Positions 1 to 15,253 of a stretch of 25,672 nt of DNA are shown piece by piece. The translations under genes were made by a program, and so were the position numbers. Within the stretch, counting starts at the first letter, position 1; each line of letters opens with the position of its first letter. The notes below the pieces were generated by a model that did not search any database, was not told the origin of the DNA, and was given only the letters and a program-made list of their open reading frames with translations. The DNA is from a virus, in the IMG/VR virus record IMGVR_UViG_3300022874_000041, positions 1-25,672 of that record. One strand, 5' to 3'.

Positions 1-56
1 TTGATGTATTTCCACGAACCATCTCCCATCTGAACTTCGTAGGCTTCAGGCAAACA
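1..56 (-). other. Start of an intein in nrdJ (N-terminal splicing segment, partial)
   Basis: Residue 253 of the reductase is Cys (codon 56-54), directly after GGVRR. From there the translation CLPEAYEVQMGDGSWKYI has the form of intein block A: catalytic Cys1 followed by Leu, then an x-V-x-x-x-D-G-x-W-K-x-I run as in Hint domains. GGVRR|S is a known intein insertion point in class II reductases. Only 18 full residues are visible, so the intein's length, any endonuclease domain and its C-terminal junction lie outside the window. Confidence 0.8.
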
Positions 57-812
57 ACGCCTAACTCCGCCGCTGAGCACAGCATCAGAACAATGCATCA
101 AAATATCGTATGCAATAATAGGAGTCATCTTAATGCTTGCTACTGTAATATAAGATTCTAATAGACGTTCTATTCTTTCTAAAGACTGCTGAAGTCCTTC
201 ATGTCCTGGTGCTTTAAATCCTCCAGCTATCAGAGATCCTCTTTGTCTTATTAGACTATAATCAAAGTGAACAACGCTATTTTTATATTCTGGGAATGTA
301 CGGTCAGCATCAAAATATGAAGACATTAATACTCCAACTGCATCTGACCAACCTTCAATAGAATCTTGAATTACATATGTCTTAGTACCGTTTGTTCTTT
401 TAGATACTGTAGGCAGTTTAGCAACATACGGTTTTAGGAATGACATTCCAACTCCACAGCCACAAAGTAACATATACATAGCTTCCTGGAATACTGCCGT
501 TCTATCACAATATGATACAGTACAATTGTACATCTTGGCGTTATGCTTCATAATAGGTGCTCCGCTAAACTGCAAAGATCTTTGAGACGCTAATACTAAT
601 TTCTCTTGATATGCACTAACTGCACTATCAAACATCTTAACAAATTCTTTGTTCTTAAAAGCTTCTTTAAACTTTGGATTTGTACGGTGCATATCCATTA
701 CACTATCAACCCTCTCATCCCAGGTCTGTTTTCGCTCTAACTTCTCGTTGTACTTCGAGTAGTCATTGTAAAATTTAATGTCAGATAAAATTCGCGTTCC
801 ATTCATTTTCAT
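1..812 (-). CDS. nrdJ: Adenosylcobalamin-dependent (class II) ribonucleoside-triphosphate reductase, N-terminal part, interrupted by an intein; partial
   Basis: Makes deoxyribonucleotides for phage DNA synthesis using a B12 radical. Translating from the ATG at 812 gives 270 residues before the window edge. Features typical of monomeric class II reductases are RSLQFSG (about 78-84), an NCT substrate-site cysteine (96-98), the glycine/cysteine-rich stretch LLCGCGVGMSF (115-125) and SGGVRR (247-252). Straight after GGVRR the protein reads CLPEAYEVQMGDGSWKYI, which is an intein start rather than the expected Ser-Ala of the reductase. MKMNG gives two possible ATGs (812 and 806). No clear Shine-Dalgarno lies upstream, only an A-rich leader. 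It is the last gene in the window and follows the DNA polymerase fragment. I cannot see whether the intein is contiguous or split, or where the rest of the reductase lies. Confidence 0.85.
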   Translation of the reverse strand, partial: MKMNGTRILSDIKFYNDYSKYNEKLERKQTWDERVDSVMDMHRTNPKFKEAFKNKEFVKMFDSAVSAYQEKLVLASQRSLQFSGAPIMKHNAKMYNCTVSYCDRTAVFQEAMYMLLCGCGVGMSFLKPYVAKLPTVSKRTNGTKTYVIQDSIEGWSDAVGVLMSSYFDADRTFPEYKNSVVHFDYSLIRQRGSLIAGGFKAPGHEGLQQSLERIERLLESYITVASIKMTPIIAYDILMHCSDAVLSGGVRRCLPEAYEVQMGDGSWKYI

Positions 813-846
813 TTATATTATTTTCTTTTTGGTAAAGTTAAAATAA

Positions 847-895
847 CCACTTAAATGTATGCTTTGAATTTCTTCATATAGCTACATTTAAGTGG
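847..895 (-). terminator. Perfect 13-bp inverted repeat between polymerase fragment and nrdJ
   Basis: CCACTTAAATGTA at 847-859 pairs perfectly with TACATTTAAGTGG at 883-895 around a 23-nt loop. Read on the minus strand, the stem is followed by TTATTTTAACTTT, so it could be a weak intrinsic terminator or an mRNA-stabilising or attenuating hairpin in the nrdJ leader. The stem is AT-rich and the U tract is interrupted, so termination is only a suggestion. Confidence 0.45.
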
Positions 896-906
896 CAAGA
901 TTGTGC

Positions 907-937
907 TAGATAATGTCTCCGTGAGTTAAATTATCTA
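907..937 (-). other. 8-bp inverted repeat in the nrdJ leader
   Basis: TAGATAAT (907-914) and ATTATCTA (930-937) form a perfect 8-bp stem with a 15-nt loop, only 11 nt from the 13-bp hairpin at 847-895. The two stems together fill most of the 165-nt gap between the polymerase stop and nrdJ. I see no small gene here. Role unknown. Confidence 0.4.
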
Positions 938-942
938 TAGTA

Positions 943-950
943 TATTTATA
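943..950 (-). promoter_or_regulatory. Exact match to the T4 late-promoter octamer TATAAATA
   Basis: The minus strand reads TATAAATA, the T4 late promoter core, in the non-coding gap after the polymerase stop and 131 nt before the nrdJ start. The same octamer occurs by chance inside genes of this AT-rich DNA, so only its intergenic position supports it. nrdJ is usually an early or middle gene, which argues against a late promoter. Confidence 0.25.
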
Positions 951-977
951 CCGCTTAAGTTTGTAGTAAATGTCTTA

Positions 978-2393
978 CTAGGACTTAGATATGGCTTTCT
1001 CCATCTCGTACGCTTGGGTCTGAAGCTCAAACGATTTCTTCTTATAAGTCTTTCTCTGGCCATACAAATCAGTTAGAATTTCTTTCAAAATAGAAGTGTC
1101 CGTGCTATAGACAGCACCGTTAATTGCTACAATTCTATCTGGTCCAAGTTCAGTATCTTTTTCTTCAGGTGCCACTTTAGCAATAAAACTTTCAGGTGAT
1201 ACATTCATCTGTCTCATTATCGAAGGATATAGCGATGCAAAGTCGAAGCAAGCAACAGCAGAGTGAAGTCCTGGAATAGGGTGTTTTACAAATGCGCCTG
1301 CATACTTCCCAGTCTTAATTGATACTTTAGCTGGATCCTTTGCCATAACTAAATCCTTACCCAATAATGCTCGGCAGATTAAAGATTCTGTTACCGCAAC
1401 CGGAGAACCTGCTTTGAATACTGTTACTTGGCTTAAGTGAGATATTGTTAATGCAATCTCCATCGTTTTAATTCTTTCATGAATTAACTGAACAAGAATA
1501 GTATCTACTCCATTATAGAAGATGTACTTAGGATATTCCTTTTCATACATGTCCTGAATAGTGCCATCGTACTTAACTTTCCTAATTCCTAAAACTGCTT
1601 CGCCAACAGTGTCAAGTTTAAAGTCTTCCTTGATGTCAACTGAGTGATCCCATTTTTTATAGATGTCCATGTAATCCATAATTCCTACATGAAGTGGAAA
1701 TTCATCGTTAGTCTGTCCTAGTTCCTTGATAGGTGAAGCAATTCTTGGATCGATGTTGATCTTCCGTGCTCGGTTTCGAATATATGCCCAGTCAAATTTA
1801 ATGAAGTTCCAACCTGTCATCATTGGGAAGTTCTTTACGAACTTATCCAAAAATGTATATAACATATCATATTCAGAATCGAAACACTTAAATTCAAATT
1901 GGTATGTGACATCAAGATCTTTAAAGTGATTGTTGATACGATTTTCAATTTTAGCAATCTCCCCTTTAGGAAGTTGTTTAGTTGCTAATATTATGCACTG
2001 TCGGTTGGGTGTTACTACACAGATAGCGGTGATTGGAGTGGCTGCCTTGGACGGCTCAGTAAAATCATTATTCTCATTTACTTCAACTTCAATATCTACA
2101 AAGTATGTTCGTGGAAAATGATAACCAAAAATCAATTCACGATCAGAGAACCCAATATCTGATATGTATTGGATCATCCTGTGCTTATTGAGTCTCATGG
2201 CTTTCACTTTCTTAACTGGGCGACCATCCCAATTTTTCATCTTAGTGTCAGCTTTCTTATCACCTTCCCTGCATACTTCCCAATTATACATTTCTTCAGG
2301 TAGAACATCATAAGTCTTAAACCTTGTCTTACCTTCTAAATTGTAATATGAAATCCAAATCTGCTTGTCGTGTTGGGAAATATCTAATAGCAT
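978..2393 (-). CDS. 43: Family B DNA polymerase (T4 gp43-like), N-terminal exonuclease plus palm motif A part of a split enzyme
   Basis: Replicative polymerase fragment of 471 residues; T4 gp43 is about 900. Visible motifs: Exo I YFVDIEVE (D100, E102), Exo II GWNFIKFD (N196, D201), Exo III YNGVDT (Y293, D297) and polymerase motif A DFASLYPSI with catalytic D384. The protein ends about 87 residues after motif A in a Lys-rich helix (YGQRKTYKKKSFEL), i.e. along the first fingers helix. Motif B (KxxxNSxYG) and motif C (DTDS) are absent. The stop is TAG followed at once by TAA, and no reading frame of the next 165 nt carries motif B. The exonuclease should be active, but synthesis needs a C-terminal partner encoded elsewhere. 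No intein sequence is seen at the C-terminus. The A-rich leader AAAATAAAGA precedes the ATG. Confidence 0.9.
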   Translation of the reverse strand: MLLDISQHDKQIWISYYNLEGKTRFKTYDVLPEEMYNWEVCREGDKKADTKMKNWDGRPVKKVKAMRLNKHRMIQYISDIGFSDRELIFGYHFPRTYFVDIEVEVNENNDFTEPSKAATPITAICVVTPNRQCIILATKQLPKGEIAKIENRINNHFKDLDVTYQFEFKCFDSEYDMLYTFLDKFVKNFPMMTGWNFIKFDWAYIRNRARKINIDPRIASPIKELGQTNDEFPLHVGIMDYMDIYKKWDHSVDIKEDFKLDTVGEAVLGIRKVKYDGTIQDMYEKEYPKYIFYNGVDTILVQLIHERIKTMEIALTISHLSQVTVFKAGSPVAVTESLICRALLGKDLVMAKDPAKVSIKTGKYAGAFVKHPIPGLHSAVACFDFASLYPSIMRQMNVSPESFIAKVAPEEKDTELGPDRIVAINGAVYSTDTSILKEILTDLYGQRKTYKKKSFELQTQAYEMEKAISKS

Positions 2394-2442
2394 TCTTTAT
2401 TTTTATGAGGGTTATTAATTATATCTAAAAAACTATGATAAC

Positions 2443-2934
2443 TTAATATCCGGTGCGGGCTCTGTTCCAATTTTCTTCATTCTTACTTAGGTAATAATTG
2501 TAAATCTCCTGAGATGTAATGCCTAAAGCTAACCCATTATTAAACATGAAGTGCATTGCATCTATAAACTCCATCTTAAGTTCTTTCATATCATTATCAG
2601 ATAAGTCAGAAAGTTTCTTTTCTCTAATTTCAGCATTAGCACTCTTCCAAGGCTTCCATGCTGCATTACCAGCACCATCATCAATTCCACCAACCGCATC
2701 TACCATCTCGTGAAGCTCATCTACTAGCGCGTGGTTATTCATCATCATAAAATCTATCACTTCACCGATGTTGAACTCGCCAAATGATTTCTTTCCTTGT
2801 TTTTGTGCATACATATCCTGAGTTTTACCTTGGAGTTCGTATAAGTCACCTAAAGAAGATTTTTCATCATATCCATTTTCAGTATAATAATCTCTAACTT
2901 CTAGATCTGCACACTTATTGTCTGTATTTGCCAT
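2443..2934 (-). CDS. Dimeric all-alpha dUTPase
   Basis: Hydrolyses dUTP to dUMP and pyrophosphate, keeping uracil out of phage DNA and feeding dTMP synthesis. The 163-residue protein shows the dimeric dUTPase/MazG-type metal motifs: ELHEMVDAVGG (E-x-x-E helix), the WKPWK loop, EFIDAMHFMFNNGLALG (E-x-x-D-x-x-H-F helix) and the C-terminal YYLSKNEENWNRARTGY, matching the family's Y-x-x-K-N-x-x-N-x-x-R-x-x-G-Y tail. It lies just upstream of the polymerase fragment, so nucleotide metabolism and replication genes are adjacent. No Shine-Dalgarno is evident (TCTAAACGACAAT before ATG). A related NTP pyrophosphohydrolase specificity is possible, but the WKxWK and C-terminal motifs favour dUTP. Confidence 0.82.
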   Translation of the reverse strand: MANTDNKCADLEVRDYYTENGYDEKSSLGDLYELQGKTQDMYAQKQGKKSFGEFNIGEVIDFMMMNNHALVDELHEMVDAVGGIDDGAGNAAWKPWKSANAEIREKKLSDLSDNDMKELKMEFIDAMHFMFNNGLALGITSQEIYNYYLSKNEENWNRARTGY

Positions 2935-3058
2935 ATTGTCGTTTAGAGATTATATGAACATGAACAGATTTGTTTTCATTTTCTTCATATTTATCCACAC
3001 TATTCATCAGATGCTAGTAATACTATAGTGAAATCGTGTGTAGTCGAAAACAAATGAC

Positions 3059-4015
3059 TTATTGCTTAACCATCATTATACCAGCTACATTTAATGGATT
3101 TACAGCTGCACCTGTAGTCTGGTAAATATCACCAGTAGCTAAACCCGCAGTGCCTGCTACAGCATCATTATCGTATGCAGGGATGATGCTTGGTATGCTT
3201 GGAGTTTCCCAAGTTAGGTTTCCGTTTCCATCGGTCTCAATAATTTGACCGGCAGTTCCGTCACCATCAGGTAAAGTGTAAAAACCTAGAGCTGAACCTA
3301 TTCTTATACCAGAATCAACAACTGTAATGGATCTCTCTTCTCCACCATTCTCGTCTTTAAGAAACAAACCAGCTGAAGCGTTCTCTAAAATAAGTTCTGC
3401 TTTGTAGTCAGCGTTGCCAAACTCCACACTGGACGCAAACTCATCAAGAATAATGCTTGCTGATTCGTTTTCTCTGTCTAAGTTAAAATAGATTGAATCA
3501 GTGTTTGAACCTAAGGCTGCTGTATTTCCAGTTACATCGTCTTCGGTAAGAGAAAAGAGCCCTACTCCAGCTCCTACCTCACTACCGTCTCCAACAATTA
3601 AACCTGAAAACAAATCACCCTTCAAGTAAGTAAGACCTGAACCTATAATTGGAGTTCCAATAAGGTTTTCCCAATTTCCAGCTCCAACGTCCATTTCATC
3701 GCCTGCTTTCATAACAGAAGTAACGTAGAACTTATCTTCGGCTCTATAAAAGAACTCATCAGATGCAAACTCTCCGTTATCGTTGTATTGAACTTCGTTT
3801 GTACTCCCGGCTGGGGTTCCTCCTCCACTTCCCCCGGGTGATGATATCGTAATCTGTCTACCAGATGGTGTATCTATGCCTGTGATGAAAATGTTTGATC
3901 CAGCTATAAGTGCTGGATTATAAGCAGAGTCTATAAGGTTAGTCATAGAGTCCTGACTTATAAGATCGCCAGTTTGAAAAAGATCTTTAAGTTGATATTT
4001 AGGTGTGATTGCCAC
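3059..4015 (-). CDS. Tail-fibre-like or other virion adhesin protein
   Basis: A 318-residue protein rich in Gly, Ser, Thr and Asn with no enzymatic motif. It has a glycine-rich hinge (SSPGGSGGGTPAGS, about 73-86) followed by NEVQYNDNGEFASDEFFY, a sentence type common at the start of shaft or repeat regions in phage fibre proteins. Beta-rich segments follow, with a C-terminal part built of short Gly/Asp loops (DGDGTAGQIIETDGNGNLTW). The start is a GTG directly after the stop of the upstream gene (TAA GTG), which suggests translational coupling. It could be a fibre, whisker or head-decoration protein. There is no recognisable chaperone or peptidase domain. The 124 nt after it (2935-3058) hold no gene I can support. 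Confidence 0.55.
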   Translation of the reverse strand: MAITPKYQLKDLFQTGDLISQDSMTNLIDSAYNPALIAGSNIFITGIDTPSGRQITISSPGGSGGGTPAGSTNEVQYNDNGEFASDEFFYRAEDKFYVTSVMKAGDEMDVGAGNWENLIGTPIIGSGLTYLKGDLFSGLIVGDGSEVGAGVGLFSLTEDDVTGNTAALGSNTDSIYFNLDRENESASIILDEFASSVEFGNADYKAELILENASAGLFLKDENGGEERSITVVDSGIRIGSALGFYTLPDGDGTAGQIIETDGNGNLTWETPSIPSIIPAYDNDAVAGTAGLATGDIYQTTGAAVNPLNVAGIMMVKQ

Positions 4016-9295: not shown

Positions 9296-10117
9296 TTATT
9301 TTTTAAAAGCTAAAGACTTTTTTATTATCTTCATCAGACGATAAAATGTTGGTGGTGAAATACCAAGTTCTTTTATCATATCTTTGCTTTTCATGTTGTG
9401 CAATAACAATTGTTTAATTTTATCTATTCTGAGTTCATCTCGTTTAGCCCAAGCCTTTCGTCTACCAGCTAAAGCTTTACGCTGCAATTCTTTTTGGTCA
9501 AGCTTGGCCATTGCTTTTTTTGTACCTATAGAAATATTTTCCTTCCATTCTTCAGTAAATACTCTACCGGTTAGAGTATCAGAAAGTTTCTTTTTAGTTT
9601 CCTCTGAATGTGTATATCCCATTTTAGTTCTAACAGCGTTTCCTATTTTGCCAATTTCTATTCTTCTTAGAGGATCTTTACACCATCCACCATATTTTTT
9701 GTTTCTTGCAACTGTATGCTTTCTTATAGAGTTTTTTATAGTTTCAGCTTTCTCTTTACCATACATCTCCTCGTATGTTTTACCTTTACATCTTTTAGTT
9801 GCTGCAATAGAAGCATTTTCGTTATAACCTCCTGTACCACCGGGCATCATATTATAACCATTCTTACTATAGTTACATTCTAATTTTTCAATCCAATAAC
9901 ATTCTGCTTCATCTAATTCTGACTTGGTCTTGCATTCTTGCAAGGTTGTCCAAACAAATCCTTCGGTACCATAAGATCTCAATGCATTATGAAATATCCA
10001 CTTGGAGCCTGCTTTAACTGAGGCTATGTGACTTGACACTCTAACATCTAAGCTATTTTTAGTTTGACCTACATAAGATTTTCCAGACTTTTTATTTAGT
10101 GCTCTATAAACTATCAT
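9296..10117 (-). CDS. GIY-YIG homing endonuclease (Seg-like, free-standing)
   Basis: A site-specific DNA endonuclease that spreads its own gene. From the ATG at 10117 the protein begins MIVYRALNKKSGKSYVGQT, the GIY-YIG core (here VYR...SYVG), followed by LDVRVSSH with the catalytic Arg and DEAECYWIEKL with the catalytic Glu. Then come NUMOD-like DNA-binding repeats (THSEETKKKLSDTLTGR, TEEWKENISIGTKKAM) and a C-terminal helix-turn-helix (KDMIKELGISPPTFYRLMK). I prefer 10117, or 10123, over the longer in-frame start at 10237, because the longer form overlaps the previous gene by 86 nt with a tail unlike the family, and ACAGG sits just ahead of 10123/10117. The gene separates two packaged-type enzyme genes. 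Confidence 0.85.
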   Translation of the reverse strand: MIVYRALNKKSGKSYVGQTKNSLDVRVSSHIASVKAGSKWIFHNALRSYGTEGFVWTTLQECKTKSELDEAECYWIEKLECNYSKNGYNMMPGGTGGYNENASIAATKRCKGKTYEEMYGKEKAETIKNSIRKHTVARNKKYGGWCKDPLRRIEIGKIGNAVRTKMGYTHSEETKKKLSDTLTGRVFTEEWKENISIGTKKAMAKLDQKELQRKALAGRRKAWAKRDELRIDKIKQLLLHNMKSKDMIKELGISPPTFYRLMKIIKKSLAFKK

Positions 10118-10137
10118 TGCCATACCTGTGTTTTTAT

Positions 10138-10145
10138 TATATATC
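10138..10145 (-). promoter_or_regulatory. GATATATA element upstream of the GIY-YIG gene
   Basis: GATATATA on the minus strand, 15 nt before ATG 10123 and just after the stop of the upstream gene. The same octamer lies shortly upstream of three other genes in the window (12459-12466, 14263-14270, 20868-20875). It may be a promoter -10 or late-promoter core of this phage; AT-richness makes chance matches likely. Confidence 0.3.
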
Positions 10146-10151
10146 AGGGTT

Positions 10152-11435
10152 TTATTTTTTATAAGCGATAATAGATCTGATTGTGTGGAGCGGAGCAAAG
10201 ATCCCAGTATATTTGTACGGCTTACCTTTATACACAAATGTAATACCTTCTGTTGGAACTATACTTTCAATTCCGCCAGCAGCTGTAAGTCTTAATAATT
10301 CCGCTTCGAGTTTTTTAACATCTTCAGCGTCACCACCTGTCTTAATACTATTAATAACACCTTCGACTTCTTTTTTCATTGCCTGCGTAGCGGCTGTAGG
10401 ATTAGCTGATAGGAACACTGATACGTTTTTCATCATTTCAGTTCCTACCTCTAAAAATATTCCTTCAAGAGGTGCATAAATTTTACGCTTTAACCTTTTA
10501 TAGTCTTTCTTCTCTAAATCAATGAACCATTGAGCGTCATCTCCAAGTTCATGTTTAAGAGTTGGTACAGTATACGACTTATCAACTCCTCCGATTCGTC
10601 TAGCAAGACCTTCTACAGCATCACTTGGTATACTAACTTTAGCTTTTTTGGCTTCGTCCTGAAGTACTTTAACGGCACTGCCCATAACGTAGTCTCTAAT
10701 AGTACTATTTAGATTAGTACCACTTTCTGCCATGATTCTCTTCAGTTCATTATTATAATAAGATGCTCTTTTCTTAGTATTTGGAAATGGCATGATAGAA
10801 ATATCAACTGGACCTCTTACGTAATAGGTTGCTTGAGCTGCTACGTTAGCATCATTGATAAGATTGCCGATTTTTCGTGCAGCAGTTTTATCTTCTCCTA
10901 TAACATTAGCAGCTTCATCATATTCAACTAAACCATGAAATACTAAAATATTCTGACCGTATGGGATAGTGTTTTGAGTTACGGGGGTTATTACTTCAAC
11001 ACTTGCAAATTTTCTACCACTATCGAATAAGTCTAACTTATCTTTCTCTGATAGTGCACCGATAGAAGCTGCTAAATCTGTCATTGCAGTATTATATGCA
11101 ATTTCAATATCCCCTCGACCTTTAAATAAATCAGCCATGCCCTGAGCGGTAAGTGCATTTTCGCCAGCATTTCTTAAGTGGCTCTTATTCCTCGCAGCAA
11201 TTAACCGCCCATCTTTCCAAGAGATCATAATGTTTTGACCATCAACCTTCTCCTGTACAAAATTATCTGGACCGAAGGCACCTTCAATAGTTGCATCGAT
11301 CATATCTTGTACGTCTCTCATAGTTAGGTCGAGATCCTCAAACGGATGTGCTAAGTGCCCATATGCTCCACCTTCTAACAATAATGGCTGACTATCATTA
11401 GTCAGCCATTGTTCAAATAACAGTATATGTCTCAT
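10152..11435 (-). CDS. ATP-dependent ligase-like nucleotidyltransferase (KVDG family) with capsid-targeting-like N-terminus
   Basis: A 427-residue protein of the covalent nucleotidyltransferase (DNA/RNA ligase, capping enzyme) fold. Motif I is QEKVDGQN, with candidate Lys63 accepting AMP. RLIAARNKSHLRNAGE follows (motif Ia-like). FASVEVITP resembles motif III, NILVFHGLVEYD motif IIIa/IV, and the C-terminal KGKPYKYTGIFAPL motif V-like. The start MRHILLFEQWLTNDSQPLLLE|GG has the recurrent signature and a perfect L-x-E|G site (L19-E21|G22), so about 21 residues may be removed on head maturation. It would join nucleic-acid strands, or modify an end or protein, in the injected cell. Whether it seals RNA or DNA cannot be told from sequence. 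It follows the acidic repeat protein gene by 9 nt. Confidence 0.72.
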   Translation of the reverse strand: MRHILLFEQWLTNDSQPLLLEGGAYGHLAHPFEDLDLTMRDVQDMIDATIEGAFGPDNFVQEKVDGQNIMISWKDGRLIAARNKSHLRNAGENALTAQGMADLFKGRGDIEIAYNTAMTDLAASIGALSEKDKLDLFDSGRKFASVEVITPVTQNTIPYGQNILVFHGLVEYDEAANVIGEDKTAARKIGNLINDANVAAQATYYVRGPVDISIMPFPNTKKRASYYNNELKRIMAESGTNLNSTIRDYVMGSAVKVLQDEAKKAKVSIPSDAVEGLARRIGGVDKSYTVPTLKHELGDDAQWFIDLEKKDYKRLKRKIYAPLEGIFLEVGTEMMKNVSVFLSANPTAATQAMKKEVEGVINSIKTGGDAEDVKKLEAELLRLTAAGGIESIVPTEGITFVYKGKPYKYTGIFAPLHTIRSIIAYKK

Positions 11436-12479: not shown

Positions 12480-13415
12480 TTAAAATTTGACGGTCTGAAC
12501 ATCATACTTAAATTGTTCCTCCTCGTAGATCTTCCTTCGTTCAGCTCCATGCTTATACATATAGTTTTTCCAATTCAAATCTTCTCCAGTATATCGGAAA
12601 TCATCTATAAAGTCGTAGATTTTAACCAATTCCTTAGAGTGATGTTTTCTTAGACCTCTACCAATTGACTGTCTAATGATAACTTCACTCTTGAAGCTTT
12701 CAGTAAAAAAAATGTTATGGATGTTCTTAATAGAAATTCCAGTACTAAAAGTTCCATAGCTTGCTACGATGATCACATCATCATTCTGCTCCATCCTTGC
12801 TTTGAACTCTTCCCTCATATCACCACTAACACTACCATCTACATAATAGACCTTCTTATCAGTAATGTTTCGTAATTGTCTATATAGTGCTTCACCATAA
12901 TCTATCTTATGAAATAACACCAACGAATTTGAATGTGACTTATTGATTACTTTCGTAACGAAGTTAAGTCGCTTTTCGTTTTGGTTAATAAAGTTCTTTT
13001 CAAGTGTAAATAACTCTCTTCGTTGTTTTGGGTTCTTAGATAAGAATGCGAATGCTTCTTTCTGCTCATCTGAAGCATAGTCCATTGTAATCTGTAAAAC
13101 CTTACAGTTTGCAATATGACCTTCATCTTGAAGATGTTTTGCTTTTACTTGGGTTACTAAGGGACCCATAGCAGACATTAATGCTAGTCGGTCAACAGTT
13201 CCTTTCTTTGGAATGGTTCCACTTAAACCAAAGCGATAATCACAATGCCAGCATTTATCCATTATAGTTTGAATTGACTTGCTTTTCGCTTTGTGACAAT
13301 TGCTTACATTTAAGCCATCAGCTATGTAATTATGATTTAAACCAGTGTCGGATTTAATTCTAAGATTGTATACATCACCGATATAATCTATAGGTTTAAT
13401 TGATTTGATTTTCAT
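12480..13415 (-). CDS. uvsW: UvsW-like helicase, C-terminal part, preceded by the C-terminal half of a split intein
   Basis: A 311-residue protein. Residues 1-39 are a split-intein C-fragment: GDVYNLRI (block F) and NHNYIADGLNVSN (block G) ending in Asn39, with Cys40 as the +1 extein nucleophile. Residues 40-311 continue an SF2 helicase from inside motif II: CHKAKS completes the DE|CH box, GLSGT is motif III, and IRQSIGRGLRKHH is motif VI. Splicing in trans to the N-terminal gene would yield 228 + 272 = 500 residues, matching T4 UvsW (503). UvsW unwinds R-loops and branched DNA in recombination-dependent replication. The start overlaps the stop of the endonuclease gene (ATGA). Without splicing this half would lack ATPase motifs I and Ia and cannot work. 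Confidence 0.88.
   Translation of the reverse strand: MKIKSIKPIDYIGDVYNLRIKSDTGLNHNYIADGLNVSNCHKAKSKSIQTIMDKCWHCDYRFGLSGTIPKKGTVDRLALMSAMGPLVTQVKAKHLQDEGHIANCKVLQITMDYASDEQKEAFAFLSKNPKQRRELFTLEKNFINQNEKRLNFVTKVINKSHSNSLVLFHKIDYGEALYRQLRNITDKKVYYVDGSVSGDMREEFKARMEQNDDVIIVASYGTFSTGISIKNIHNIFFTESFKSEVIIRQSIGRGLRKHHSKELVKIYDFIDDFRYTGEDLNWKNYMYKHGAERRKIYEEEQFKYDVQTVKF
13299..13415 (-). other. Split intein C-fragment (IntC, 39 residues)
   Basis: Residues 1-39 of the downstream uvsW gene, starting at its own ATG. The sequence has the Hint blocks F and G and ends VSN|C, where Asn39 would cyclise and Cys40 accept the extein. The usual penultimate His of block G is Ser here. The fragment length matches known natural split inteins such as NrdJ-1 and gp41-1 (about 37-41 residues). 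Confidence 0.88.
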
Positions 13416-14245
13416 ATTAGTCTAAACTGTTTTAATAGTCTTTTCATTTTTAATTCATCTGGTTGGTCTTCCAATAAAAATTCATCATAATTCTTAGAAA
13501 ACCAATTATTACCTATAATTTTAAACTTGAAGTCATTTGTCTTACACCAATCTTCCGCAGCTTTAAACTTGCTAAGATTTCTTTCAGATTCTCTAAATCC
13601 ATCTGGTTTTATTTCGTAAATTGTTTTATTCTTCTCATCAACAAAATCTACAATGTAAGTTGATATTTTATCATTGAATTGATATGGAATTCTGACTTTT
13701 TCGTATATAAATCCAGGATGCTTAAGTTGAAAGTATGCGTCCCAAGATGATCTACATTTAATTTGATATTGCTTTAAATCTCTTTCAATATTCACTATAC
13801 ATCTTGATCTGGCCCAAGAATTCGTTACAGCTGGTGTAAAAGTACCATCTGCTATCATTTTCTTCAGTCTAATACCATTTTCTTTACCAATTTCTAGTTG
13901 CCTAGTTTTACTGACTTTATGACAATTGTTATTATCTCCACTCATAATGTCACTCCTCCATGAATGTAGACATTTCTTAGAGCAAAATTTAGAATATGAT
14001 CCTTTTGTTATTTTTGAATTACGAAATCCTAGAAATTTGCACTCATTGCCACATATGCATAGTTTACCTGCACCATTATGTAAGTAGTCGTAAGTACTTT
14101 GACTATCACTCAAAACAATATCTGGAACATTAAGAATAGCTCTTTCTCTTAGCCAGTGCTGTTTTGCATTAACTGTTTTTTGTTGAGAGAATGAAAGTAT
14201 TTCAATTGATATGACATTATAAATTTCTTCTTTAGGTATTGGCAT
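13412..14245 (-). CDS. PD-(D/E)xK-type (VSR-like) homing endonuclease lying between split intein halves
   Basis: A 277-residue protein. The N-terminal half has a helical lead-in and a cysteine cluster (C63, C65, C69, C88, C92: LCICGNEC and KFCSKKC) likely to bind zinc. A conserved-looking linker follows (KENGIRLKKMIADGTFTPAVTNSWARSR in register, 122-148). The C-terminal domain looks like a PD-(D/E)xK/VSR-like nuclease: E182 in FIYEKVRIPY, D200 in YIVDFVDE, and E211-x-K213 in IYEIKPDG, then a helix NLSKFKAAEDWC and strand FKFKIIG. It starts 24 nt after the IntN stop and ends overlapping the IntC start by 4 nt, so it is part of the fractured-gene element. A GATATATA element lies 18 nt upstream, suggesting its own promoter. 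Confidence 0.8.
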   Translation of the reverse strand: MPIPKEEIYNVISIEILSFSQQKTVNAKQHWLRERAILNVPDIVLSDSQSTYDYLHNGAGKLCICGNECKFLGFRNSKITKGSYSKFCSKKCLHSWRSDIMSGDNNNCHKVSKTRQLEIGKENGIRLKKMIADGTFTPAVTNSWARSRCIVNIERDLKQYQIKCRSSWDAYFQLKHPGFIYEKVRIPYQFNDKISTYIVDFVDEKNKTIYEIKPDGFRESERNLSKFKAAEDWCKTNDFKFKIIGNNWFSKNYDEFLLEDQPDELKMKRLLKQFRLI

Positions 14246-14262
14246 TGAGTTTATGTTTTGAG

Positions 14263-14270
14263 TATATATC
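14263..14270 (-). promoter_or_regulatory. GATATATA element upstream of the intein-associated endonuclease gene
   Basis: GATATATA on the minus strand, 18 nt before ATG 14245 and touching the stop of the IntN gene. It may allow expression of the endonuclease independently of uvsW; the same octamer precedes the GIY-YIG gene. Weak evidence because the DNA is AT-rich. Confidence 0.3.
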
Positions 14271-15253
14271 TAAGACATATCTTTAATGCTAATAATTTCA
14301 TCAGTTAAAGTTAACTCATCTACTCGCTTGTATTCTCCGCTTACAAGTTTAACTTTATGGTTACCTGTAATTTTTATGGTTGTATCTTCTAACTCTATTT
14401 CATACATTTGATTATCTCTAGATAAATTATGATGTACAAAGTCAACTTCATTAGTTTCAAGGCTTCCTGTGATATCATTAATTGTTTTTACCATATCACC
14501 TGGTACTACATCTGATATTTTTTTAAATGTATTGTTAGCCATGGATATCATAGTGTTAGGATGTAGACATTCATCTACTAATACTGCATCAAATTGTGAG
14601 AAGTATTCTTCATCATAGTTTACCAGTGATTGATAAGTACCTACAACAATATTACTACTCTTACGAATCTCAGCACCCGAATAGATCTGCTGAGTTTTTA
14701 TGCTTAATTTACCAGCGTTATATTGTTCAAAGTCACCTGTTGCCTGAATCACAAGACTTACATTTGGTACGATCATTAATATTTTCTTCTTACCTAAAAC
14801 TTCCATAAGATAGCCTATGACCATAAATGAAATTAATGTCTTTCCTGCAGAAGTTGCTAATTCAGCTAAACATCTTTTGTATTTTAGTATTTTGAATGCA
14901 GCATCGATCTGATAATCTCTCGGAGTGATTTCTCGTCCTTCGAAGAATTTTAATGCCCAAGCTTCAAACTCATCTACTTTGATAGTGTCATTGAAAATAC
15001 GAGTAATTCCAACCATTGTTAATTGGAAATCATATTCCTTACATATATCGGCTACTTCTTTCCATAGGCCAGCTGGGATGAGGTTTTTCTTAACAAATGA
15101 GATCTTGCCATCCCACACACCACGCTTCACAAGTGGATTAAACCTCCAGCCATCGATGCGTTTAGTTAAACTTGCTTTGAGTTGGTCATATTCTAACTCT
15201 GTACAAGAAGTAATAACTAAGAATTTGTTATTTTCACTTAATGTTAATTGCAT
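14270..15253 (-). CDS. uvsW: UvsW-like helicase, N-terminal part, ending in the N-terminal half of a split intein
   Basis: A 327-residue protein. Residues 1-228 are the N-terminal part of a T4 UvsW-like SF2 helicase: a leader domain with GWRFNPLVKRGVWDGKISF (35-53), a Q-type motif PRDYQ (111-115), the Walker A ELATSAGKT (131-139), LMIVPNVSLV (159-168, motif Ia), NIVVGTYQSL (201-210), and the first half of motif II, AVLVDE (223-228). At Cys229 it switches to a 99-residue intein N-fragment and stops. ATP binding is encoded here, but motifs III-VI are in the gene at 12480-13415, so an active helicase needs protein trans-splicing. It follows uvsY, as in T4. The leader is A/T-rich (AATAGCATATTA) with no Shine-Dalgarno. 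Confidence 0.9.
   Translation of the reverse strand: MQLTLSENNKFLVITSCTELEYDQLKASLTKRIDGWRFNPLVKRGVWDGKISFVKKNLIPAGLWKEVADICKEYDFQLTMVGITRIFNDTIKVDEFEAWALKFFEGREITPRDYQIDAAFKILKYKRCLAELATSAGKTLISFMVIGYLMEVLGKKKILMIVPNVSLVIQATGDFEQYNAGKLSIKTQQIYSGAEIRKSSNIVVGTYQSLVNYDEEYFSQFDAVLVDECLHPNTMISMANNTFKKISDVVPGDMVKTINDITGSLETNEVDFVHHNLSRDNQMYEIELEDTTIKITGNHKVKLVSGEYKRVDELTLTDEIISIKDMS
14273..14569 (-). other. Split intein N-fragment (IntN, 99 residues)
   Basis: Residues 229-327 of the upstream uvsW gene. Block A is CLHPNTMISMANNTFKKISD with Cys1 followed by VVPGDMV; block B is IKITGNHKVKL with the T-x-x-H signature (T296, H299), then SGEYKRVDEL. The fragment ends IISIKDMS at a stop. Length and endings are those of natural split-intein N-fragments (about 90-110 residues). 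Confidence 0.9.

What the first reader, a model, noticed from the sequence alone, without database searches (positions are those of the whole stretch)
978..2393. DNA polymerase ends after palm motif A, within the fingers
Exo I-III and motif A are intact but the gene stops (TAG TAA) before motifs B and C. By alignment of motif A with T4/RB69 gp43, residue 471 falls near the far end of the first fingers helix, so the break is close to the fingertip loop, a place where a two-piece enzyme could still assemble. Split gp43 genes are known in some T4-related Aeromonas phages. No intein marks the end, so this would be assembly rather than splicing.
Basis: partly seen in the sequence, partly recalled or inferred. 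Interest (0 to 1): 0.72.

Follow-up and report, generated by a model that had tools for sequence, protein, structure and literature searches.

The report
Two-gene DNA polymerase in huge phages
This phage gene encodes only the first half of its DNA-copying enzyme, and in close and distant relatives the second half is a separate gene, so the enzyme is almost certainly built from two proteins that meet at the tip of its 'fingers'; such splits are known from a few phages, but here the split looks fixed across a large group of huge phages.

Summary
Window 978-2393(-) encodes the N-terminal half of a T4-type family B DNA polymerase (Exo I-III, motif A, first fingers helix) and stops at TAG TAA. It is not an error or remnant. 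A phage 99.0% identical over 3.9 kb carries the missing half 12.5 kb downstream, as a separate gene starting just before motif B and carrying an in-frame intein at motif C.

All 83 IMG/VR contigs collected with this N-half end it 88-97 residues from motif A. 61 also carry a separate C-half; the other 22 end within about 6 kb of the N-half. Ten reference phage genomes (Lak, PAU, PTm5, MA9V-2, five unnamed huge phages) have the same two pieces, up to hundreds of kb apart and sometimes on opposite strands, and no other PolB, PolA or PolIII was detected. Both halves are under strong purifying selection and evolve together (r = 0.95). No intein or intron marks the fingertip junction, so non-covalent assembly is the best reading.

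The same break arose independently in Aeromonas T4-likes (gp43A/43B, reported active) and in Agrobacterium phage Atu_ph07. I call it a new variant of a known kind. Assembly itself was not tested.

The parts
978..2393 (-). gene for the N-terminal half of a T4-type family B DNA polymerase (471 aa): N domain, 3'-5' exonuclease, first part of the palm, first fingers helix
   Evidence: Pfam PF03104 + PF00136; PHROG 2062 over its whole length; RB69 gp43 as best solved relative
2082..2099 (-). Exo I motif, residues 99-104 VDIEVE (D100, E102)
   Evidence: invariant D100 and E102 in 15 and 45 homologues
1788..1811 (-). Exo II motif, residues 195-202 (N196 .. D201)
   Evidence: invariant
1503..1517 (-). 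Exo III motif, residues 293-297 (Y293 .. D297)
   Evidence: invariant
1221..1244 (-). palm motif A, residues 384-391 DFASLYPS
   Evidence: D384, L388, Y389, P390 invariant; matched to RB69 FDLTSLYPSI
981..1091 (-). first fingers helix, residues 435-471, ending at the fingertip
   Evidence: AlphaFold helix 435-470; side-by-side tails with unsplit Vibrio phage K567 and T4-like gp43
975..980 (-). tandem stop codons TAG TAA
   Evidence: read directly; same pair in L003
2443..2934 (-). neighbour upstream: MazG/dUTPase-like nucleotide pyrophosphohydrolase
   Evidence: PHROG 173 E 1.5e-17
3..812 (-). neighbour downstream: ribonucleotide reductase, cut by the contig end and running into an intein-like stretch
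   Evidence: PHROG 367 E 1.8e-35; intein-like end absent from L002

Best explanation
The gene encodes one of the two subunits of a split T4-type (gp43-like) replicative DNA polymerase. The N-subunit brings the N domain, the 3'-5' exonuclease, palm motif A and the first fingers helix. The C-subunit, encoded elsewhere in the genome, brings the second fingers helix with motif B (KxxLNSIYG), motif C (DTDS), the rest of the palm, the thumb and a C-terminal LF/VF tail. Shown: both genes exist, they divide the polymerase without a gap at the fingertip, both are conserved and selected, and no second polymerase was detected. Inferred: the chains fold together without a covalent link, the two fingers helices pairing as in an unbroken fingers hairpin and the palm sheet forming from strands of both chains, so the catalytic aspartates of motifs A and C meet only in the complex. 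In some relatives, including the one nearly identical to this phage, the C-subunit must first splice out an intein at DTDS; in others it is made from two genes with a split intein there, giving a three-polypeptide polymerase.
For: Partner found in a 99.0%-identical phage: 549-aa ORF, motif B + intein + DTDS. In 83/83 loci the N-half ends at the same place; 50 contigs have an uninterrupted C-half within 3-7 kb, always with NSxYG and DTDS and never motif A, and 11 of 14 contigs of the window's own subgroup have it further on. PHROG 262: N-half to position 495, C-half from 496. Ten reference genomes have these pieces only; no PolA or PolIII match. dN/dS 0.045 for the N-half, 0.057 for its last 30 codons; 0.01-0.04 for both halves in five pairs of loci where both could be calculated. 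N and C distances correlate at r 0.95, 0 of 2000 permutations. Precedent: gp43A and 43B of Aeromonas phage 25 co-purify with polymerase activity (PMC2988022).
Against: Nothing direct. The window record itself ends before the C-half. No two-chain model or experiment could be run. The C-half model alone is poor (mean pLDDT 68; global fit to RB69 weak, TMq about 0.35), so the interface rests on homology to RB69 gp43.
Confidence: 0.92

Rival explanations
1. Sequencing or assembly error: a frameshift or chimera cuts a normal one-piece polymerase gene.
For: None found.
Against: Same end in L002 (99.0% identical), in L003 (90%) and in 83/83 loci from other metagenomes; the next gene downstream is RNR, not a C-half; C-halves start with their own ATG 2-14 bases after another conserved gene in the loci inspected.
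Confidence: 0.01
2. A decaying remnant: another polymerase does the work and this half is a relic.
For: None found.
Against: dN/dS 0.045, and 0.057 for the last 30 codons; all exonuclease and motif A residues invariant; no other PolB, PolA or PolIII in ten reference genomes.
Confidence: 0.02
3. The halves are joined into one chain: trans-splicing of RNA by a split intron, or protein splicing by a split intein at the fingertip.
For: Split inteins are common in these phages, one even in the C-half at motif C and one in uvsW in the window.
Against: No intein sequence at the end of the N-half or the start of the C-half; no Rfam intron in the window; in the loci inspected only 2-14 bases lie upstream of the C-half start, no room for half an intron; the N-half ends in a stop codon at the natural end of its helix.
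Confidence: 0.04
4. The N-half works alone, as a 3'-5' exonuclease, and does not form a polymerase with the C-half.
For: The exonuclease domain is complete.
Against: Motif A and the first fingers helix, useless to an exonuclease, are conserved up to the stop (dN/dS about 0.06); the C-half lacks motif A and could not polymerise alone; the two evolve in step (r 0.95).
Confidence: 0.02

Closest known systems
gp43A/gp43B of Aeromonas phages 44RR2.8t and 25 (T4-type split polymerase)
   Same: Two genes; break between the two fingers helices; no intein at the junction; N-part has exonuclease + motif A, C-part motif B + C. For phage 25 the two parts co-purify and have polymerase activity (PMC2988022).
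   Different: Separate origin: all split polymerases as one clade rejected (AU p 6e-9). In Aeromonas phages the genes are adjacent or parted by one homing endonuclease; here they are 2 to hundreds of kb apart, in several huge phages on opposite strands, and some add an intein at motif C.
Tenacibaculum phage PTm5, Sphingomonas phage PAU, Chryseobacterium phage MA9V-2
   Same: Members of the same PolB clade with the same fingertip split. PTm5 ORF-237 is annotated 'intein-containing split DNA polymerase precursor'.
   Different: About 27-30% identical to the window N-half; the halves were annotated as separate polymerases, and in the papers I could read no remark on the fingertip split was found (and searches).
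RB69 and T4 gp43 (unsplit)
   Same: Same domains; best solved relatives of both halves.
   Different: One chain; T4 gp43 has about 20 more residues at the fingertip.
Split archaeal PolB (Methanothermobacter; Nanoarchaeum equitans)
   Same: A family B polymerase encoded by two genes (PMC4104785).
   Different: Archaeal enzymes; the N. equitans parts are joined by a split intein, which is absent from the fingertip junction here.
Pseudomonas phage MIJ3 polB with split intein
   Same: Jumbo phage PolB gene interrupted by a split intein with a nuclease gene between (PMC6892783), like the motif C interruption in some relatives here.
   Different: That break is an intein; no fingertip split is reported there.

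Membership tests
T4-type family B DNA polymerase (gp43) | Exo I, II, III residues in the N-terminal part | tested here: met
   D100, E102, D201, Y293, D297 conserved; PF03104 E 2e-13
T4-type family B DNA polymerase (gp43) | palm motif A (DxxSLYPS) | tested here: met
   D384 FASLYPS
T4-type family B DNA polymerase (gp43) | motifs B and C in the same chain | tested here: not met
   absent from this ORF; present in a separate gene in 61 IMG/VR contigs and ten reference genomes
T4-type family B DNA polymerase (gp43) | closest solved fold is RB69/T4 gp43 | tested here: met
   N-half: Foldseek E 6e-25, TMq 0.71; C-half E 4e-9 but weak global fit
Two-gene split gp43 (Aeromonas 43A/43B kind) | two separate genes that together cover the polymerase, break between the fingers helices | tested here: met
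   PHROG 262 positions 91-495 and 496-845; tails aligned
Two-gene split gp43 (Aeromonas 43A/43B kind) | no intein or intron at the junction | tested here: met
Two-gene split gp43 (Aeromonas 43A/43B kind) | common descent with the Aeromonas split | tested here: not met
   AU test rejects one clade, p 6e-9; T4 and K567, unsplit, lie with Aeromonas phages
Two-gene split gp43 (Aeromonas 43A/43B kind) | the two chains form an active polymerase | not testable with these tools
   needs expression and assay
Intein-split PolB (N. equitans, MIJ3 kind) | N- and C-intein halves at the break | tested here: not met
   none at the fingertip; present at motif C in some relatives only

The most novel reading that the evidence does not exclude
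In a whole lineage of huge phages, including Lak megaphages of over 500 kb, the replicative polymerase has been an obligate two-chain enzyme since their common ancestor, and separate genes let the phage control its subunits separately, for example an N-subunit that also acts alone as a proofreading exonuclease, or polymerase that becomes active only after a spliced C-subunit appears.
Probability: 0.15. Interest if true: 0.75.

Novelty: new variant of a known kind. Interest (0 to 1): 0.5.

Why it matters
Replicative family B polymerases are almost always one chain. Here one has been kept in two, with the genes often far apart, across a broad group of phages; the same fingertip was broken at least three times independently. 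It marks the fingertip as a tolerated break point in a moving part of the enzyme, offers a ready split site for engineered polymerases, and warns annotators that the two 'DNA polymerases' in many huge phage genomes are one enzyme.

Tried and rejected
C-half in the window's own record: impossible to find, since the record is only the 25,672-base window. First run of the split-point mapping by one big MAFFT alignment scattered the terminal residues and was discarded; the tails were compared directly instead. The gene directly upstream of the C-half in 50/50 loci, suspected to be a gp45-like clamp by its place, has no significant match in Pfam, PHROGs, PDB or to T4-type gp45 by HHalign, so I do not name it. 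Opposite net charges of the two arms at the break (r -0.64 over 11 lineages, post hoc p 0.017) look like helix pairing, but unsplit enzymes lean the same way (r -0.42, n.s.), so it is weak. The solo AlphaFold models have low confidence just before motif A and at motif C, which fits a palm shared between chains but could reflect shallow alignments. Searches of open papers found no description of this clade-wide split, but subscription papers were not readable. OLB35's two-piece gp43 is an unverified record broken elsewhere and was ignored.

Full report
What was checked. The ORF at 978-2393 on the minus strand encodes 471 aa and ends with TAG TAA. Pfam finds the family B exonuclease domain and the start of the polymerase domain, profile positions 6-145 of 453. 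The catalytic residues of Exo I-III and motif A are invariant or nearly so in a diverse set of 15 and a closer set of 45 homologues. The best solved relative is RB69 gp43 by sequence and fold (E 6e-25). The predicted structure (mean pLDDT 84) ends in one helix, 435-470, which corresponds to the first fingers helix.

The other half. The window is a complete IMG/VR record of 25,672 bases, so it cannot show the partner. The contig behind L002 (39,235 bases) is 98.97% identical to window 56-3944, with an identical N-half protein. It carries, 12.5 kb downstream on the same strand, an ORF of 549 aa that starts at the second fingers helix and holds motif B, an intein of about 155 aa and motif C (Pfam Intein_splicing E 1e-12). 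Against the unsplit family PHROG 262 the window N-half covers positions 91-495 and the C-half of relative L006 covers 496-845. Between QRK and the NSxYG motif, unsplit Vibrio phage K567 has 57 residues; window plus partner have 28 + 34. Nothing is missing.

How general it is. A profile search brought 80 loci, 83 with the earlier ones. In all 83 the N-half ends 88-97 residues from the start of motif A where that motif could be located, and none continues into motif B. Fifty contigs hold an uninterrupted C-half, 3.0-7.0 kb downstream on the same strand, all with NSxYG, DTDS, KKKY and a terminal LF/VF. In the window's own subgroup 11 of 14 contigs hold it further away, eight uninterrupted, one with a cis intein (G001) and two with the intein split between genes (G003, G006); the other three end within 5 kb of the N-half. 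Ten reference genomes, among them two Lak phages, PAU, PTm5, MA9V-2 and five unnamed huge phages of 462-735 kb, have the same two pieces, from about 2 kb (PTm5) to hundreds of kb apart, and in LR756501, LR756502, LR756504, LR745206 and Lak-A2 on opposite strands. They hold no other significant PolB gene and no PolA or PolIII match. PHROGs already keeps the two halves as separate families, 2062 and 1918, matched by 45/45 N-halves and 33/33 C-halves.

Selection. dN/dS between window and L003 is 0.045 over the N-half and 0.057 over the last 30 codons before the stop. In five pairs of loci where both could be calculated it is 0.01-0.04 for both halves. Distances among N-halves and C-halves correlate at 0.95 over 43 paired loci; the best of 2000 permutations gave 0.35.

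Evolution. In the N-half tree the window, Lak, PAU, PTm5, MA9V-2 and the huge phages form one supported group, with one unsplit, long-branched member, Flavobacterium phage MaF61. The data do not reject one origin of the split in this group (AU p 0.33), but reject one origin for all split rows (AU p 6e-9): Aeromonas phages sit with unsplit T4 and K567, and Atu_ph07 with unsplit Hallingskeid. So the fingertip was broken at least three times. In 50/50 loci the C-half follows closely on one conserved gene of unknown function, and in 49/50 uvsX follows it. In cyanophages uvsX directly follows the whole gp43 gene, so the C-half probably kept the old place and the N-half moved (inference).

How it works. 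By homology with RB69 gp43, polymerase chemistry needs the aspartates of motifs A and C together; here they lie on two chains. No intein or intron marks the fingertip, so non-covalent assembly is the best reading. In phage 25 the two parts, broken at the matching place, co-purify with polymerase activity (PMC2988022). Assembly of the enzyme in this clade is not shown.

Novelty. A split T4-type polymerase is known, and PTm5 already carries the annotation 'intein-containing split DNA polymerase precursor'. I found no open paper that describes the fingertip split as a fixed trait of this group, its unlinked genes, or the three-piece form with a split intein at motif C. Open-access coverage is partial, so the claim of novelty is moderate.

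Noticed in passing
window 12480-15253 (-): uvsW helicase gene in three ORFs: helicase N-part with an intein start, a TnsA-like nuclease gene, and an intein end with the helicase C-part: a split intein with a nuclease gene between, as in 'fractured' genes.
   Followed up: partly
window 3-75 (-): The ribonucleotide reductase runs into an intein-like sequence (GGVRR|CLPEAYEVQMGDG); the 99%-identical phage L002 has an uninterrupted gene there, so the intein seems to be coming or going within the species.
   Followed up: partly
L009 31721-35121; Lak-A2 and Lak-B2; L004 and L007 contigs: The C-half is itself broken at motif C by a split intein (in L009 with a nuclease gene between), so these phages would build their polymerase from three polypeptides.
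   Followed up: partly
window: N-termini of ORFs 4421, 8406, 10152, 19350, 19658, 20510, 23869 (-): Otherwise different proteins share a start like M(K)xxIxxFEEF(L/I)xE (9 of 32 ORFs match a pattern chosen after looking, 1.4 expected), reminiscent of the head-targeting propeptides of T4 internal proteins.
   Followed up: partly
directly upstream of the C-half, e.g. L006 17565-18356: A conserved gene of 247-267 aa stands 2-14 bases upstream of the C-half in the loci inspected and just upstream in 50/50; no family match. A divergent sliding clamp is a guess from its place only.
   Followed up: partly
L054 2683-5652 (Agrobacterium phage Atu_ph07): A third, independent fingertip split of PolB, with adjacent genes of 565 and 417 aa.
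   Followed up: partly
window 9296-10237 (-): GIY-YIG homing endonuclease with a NUMOD3 motif, overlapping the next ORF.
   Followed up: no
L016 9944-12928 (Flavobacterium phage MaF61): The only unsplit member found within the clade; its fingertip is longer than in other unsplit enzymes, so it might be a re-fusion or an early branch.
   Followed up: partly
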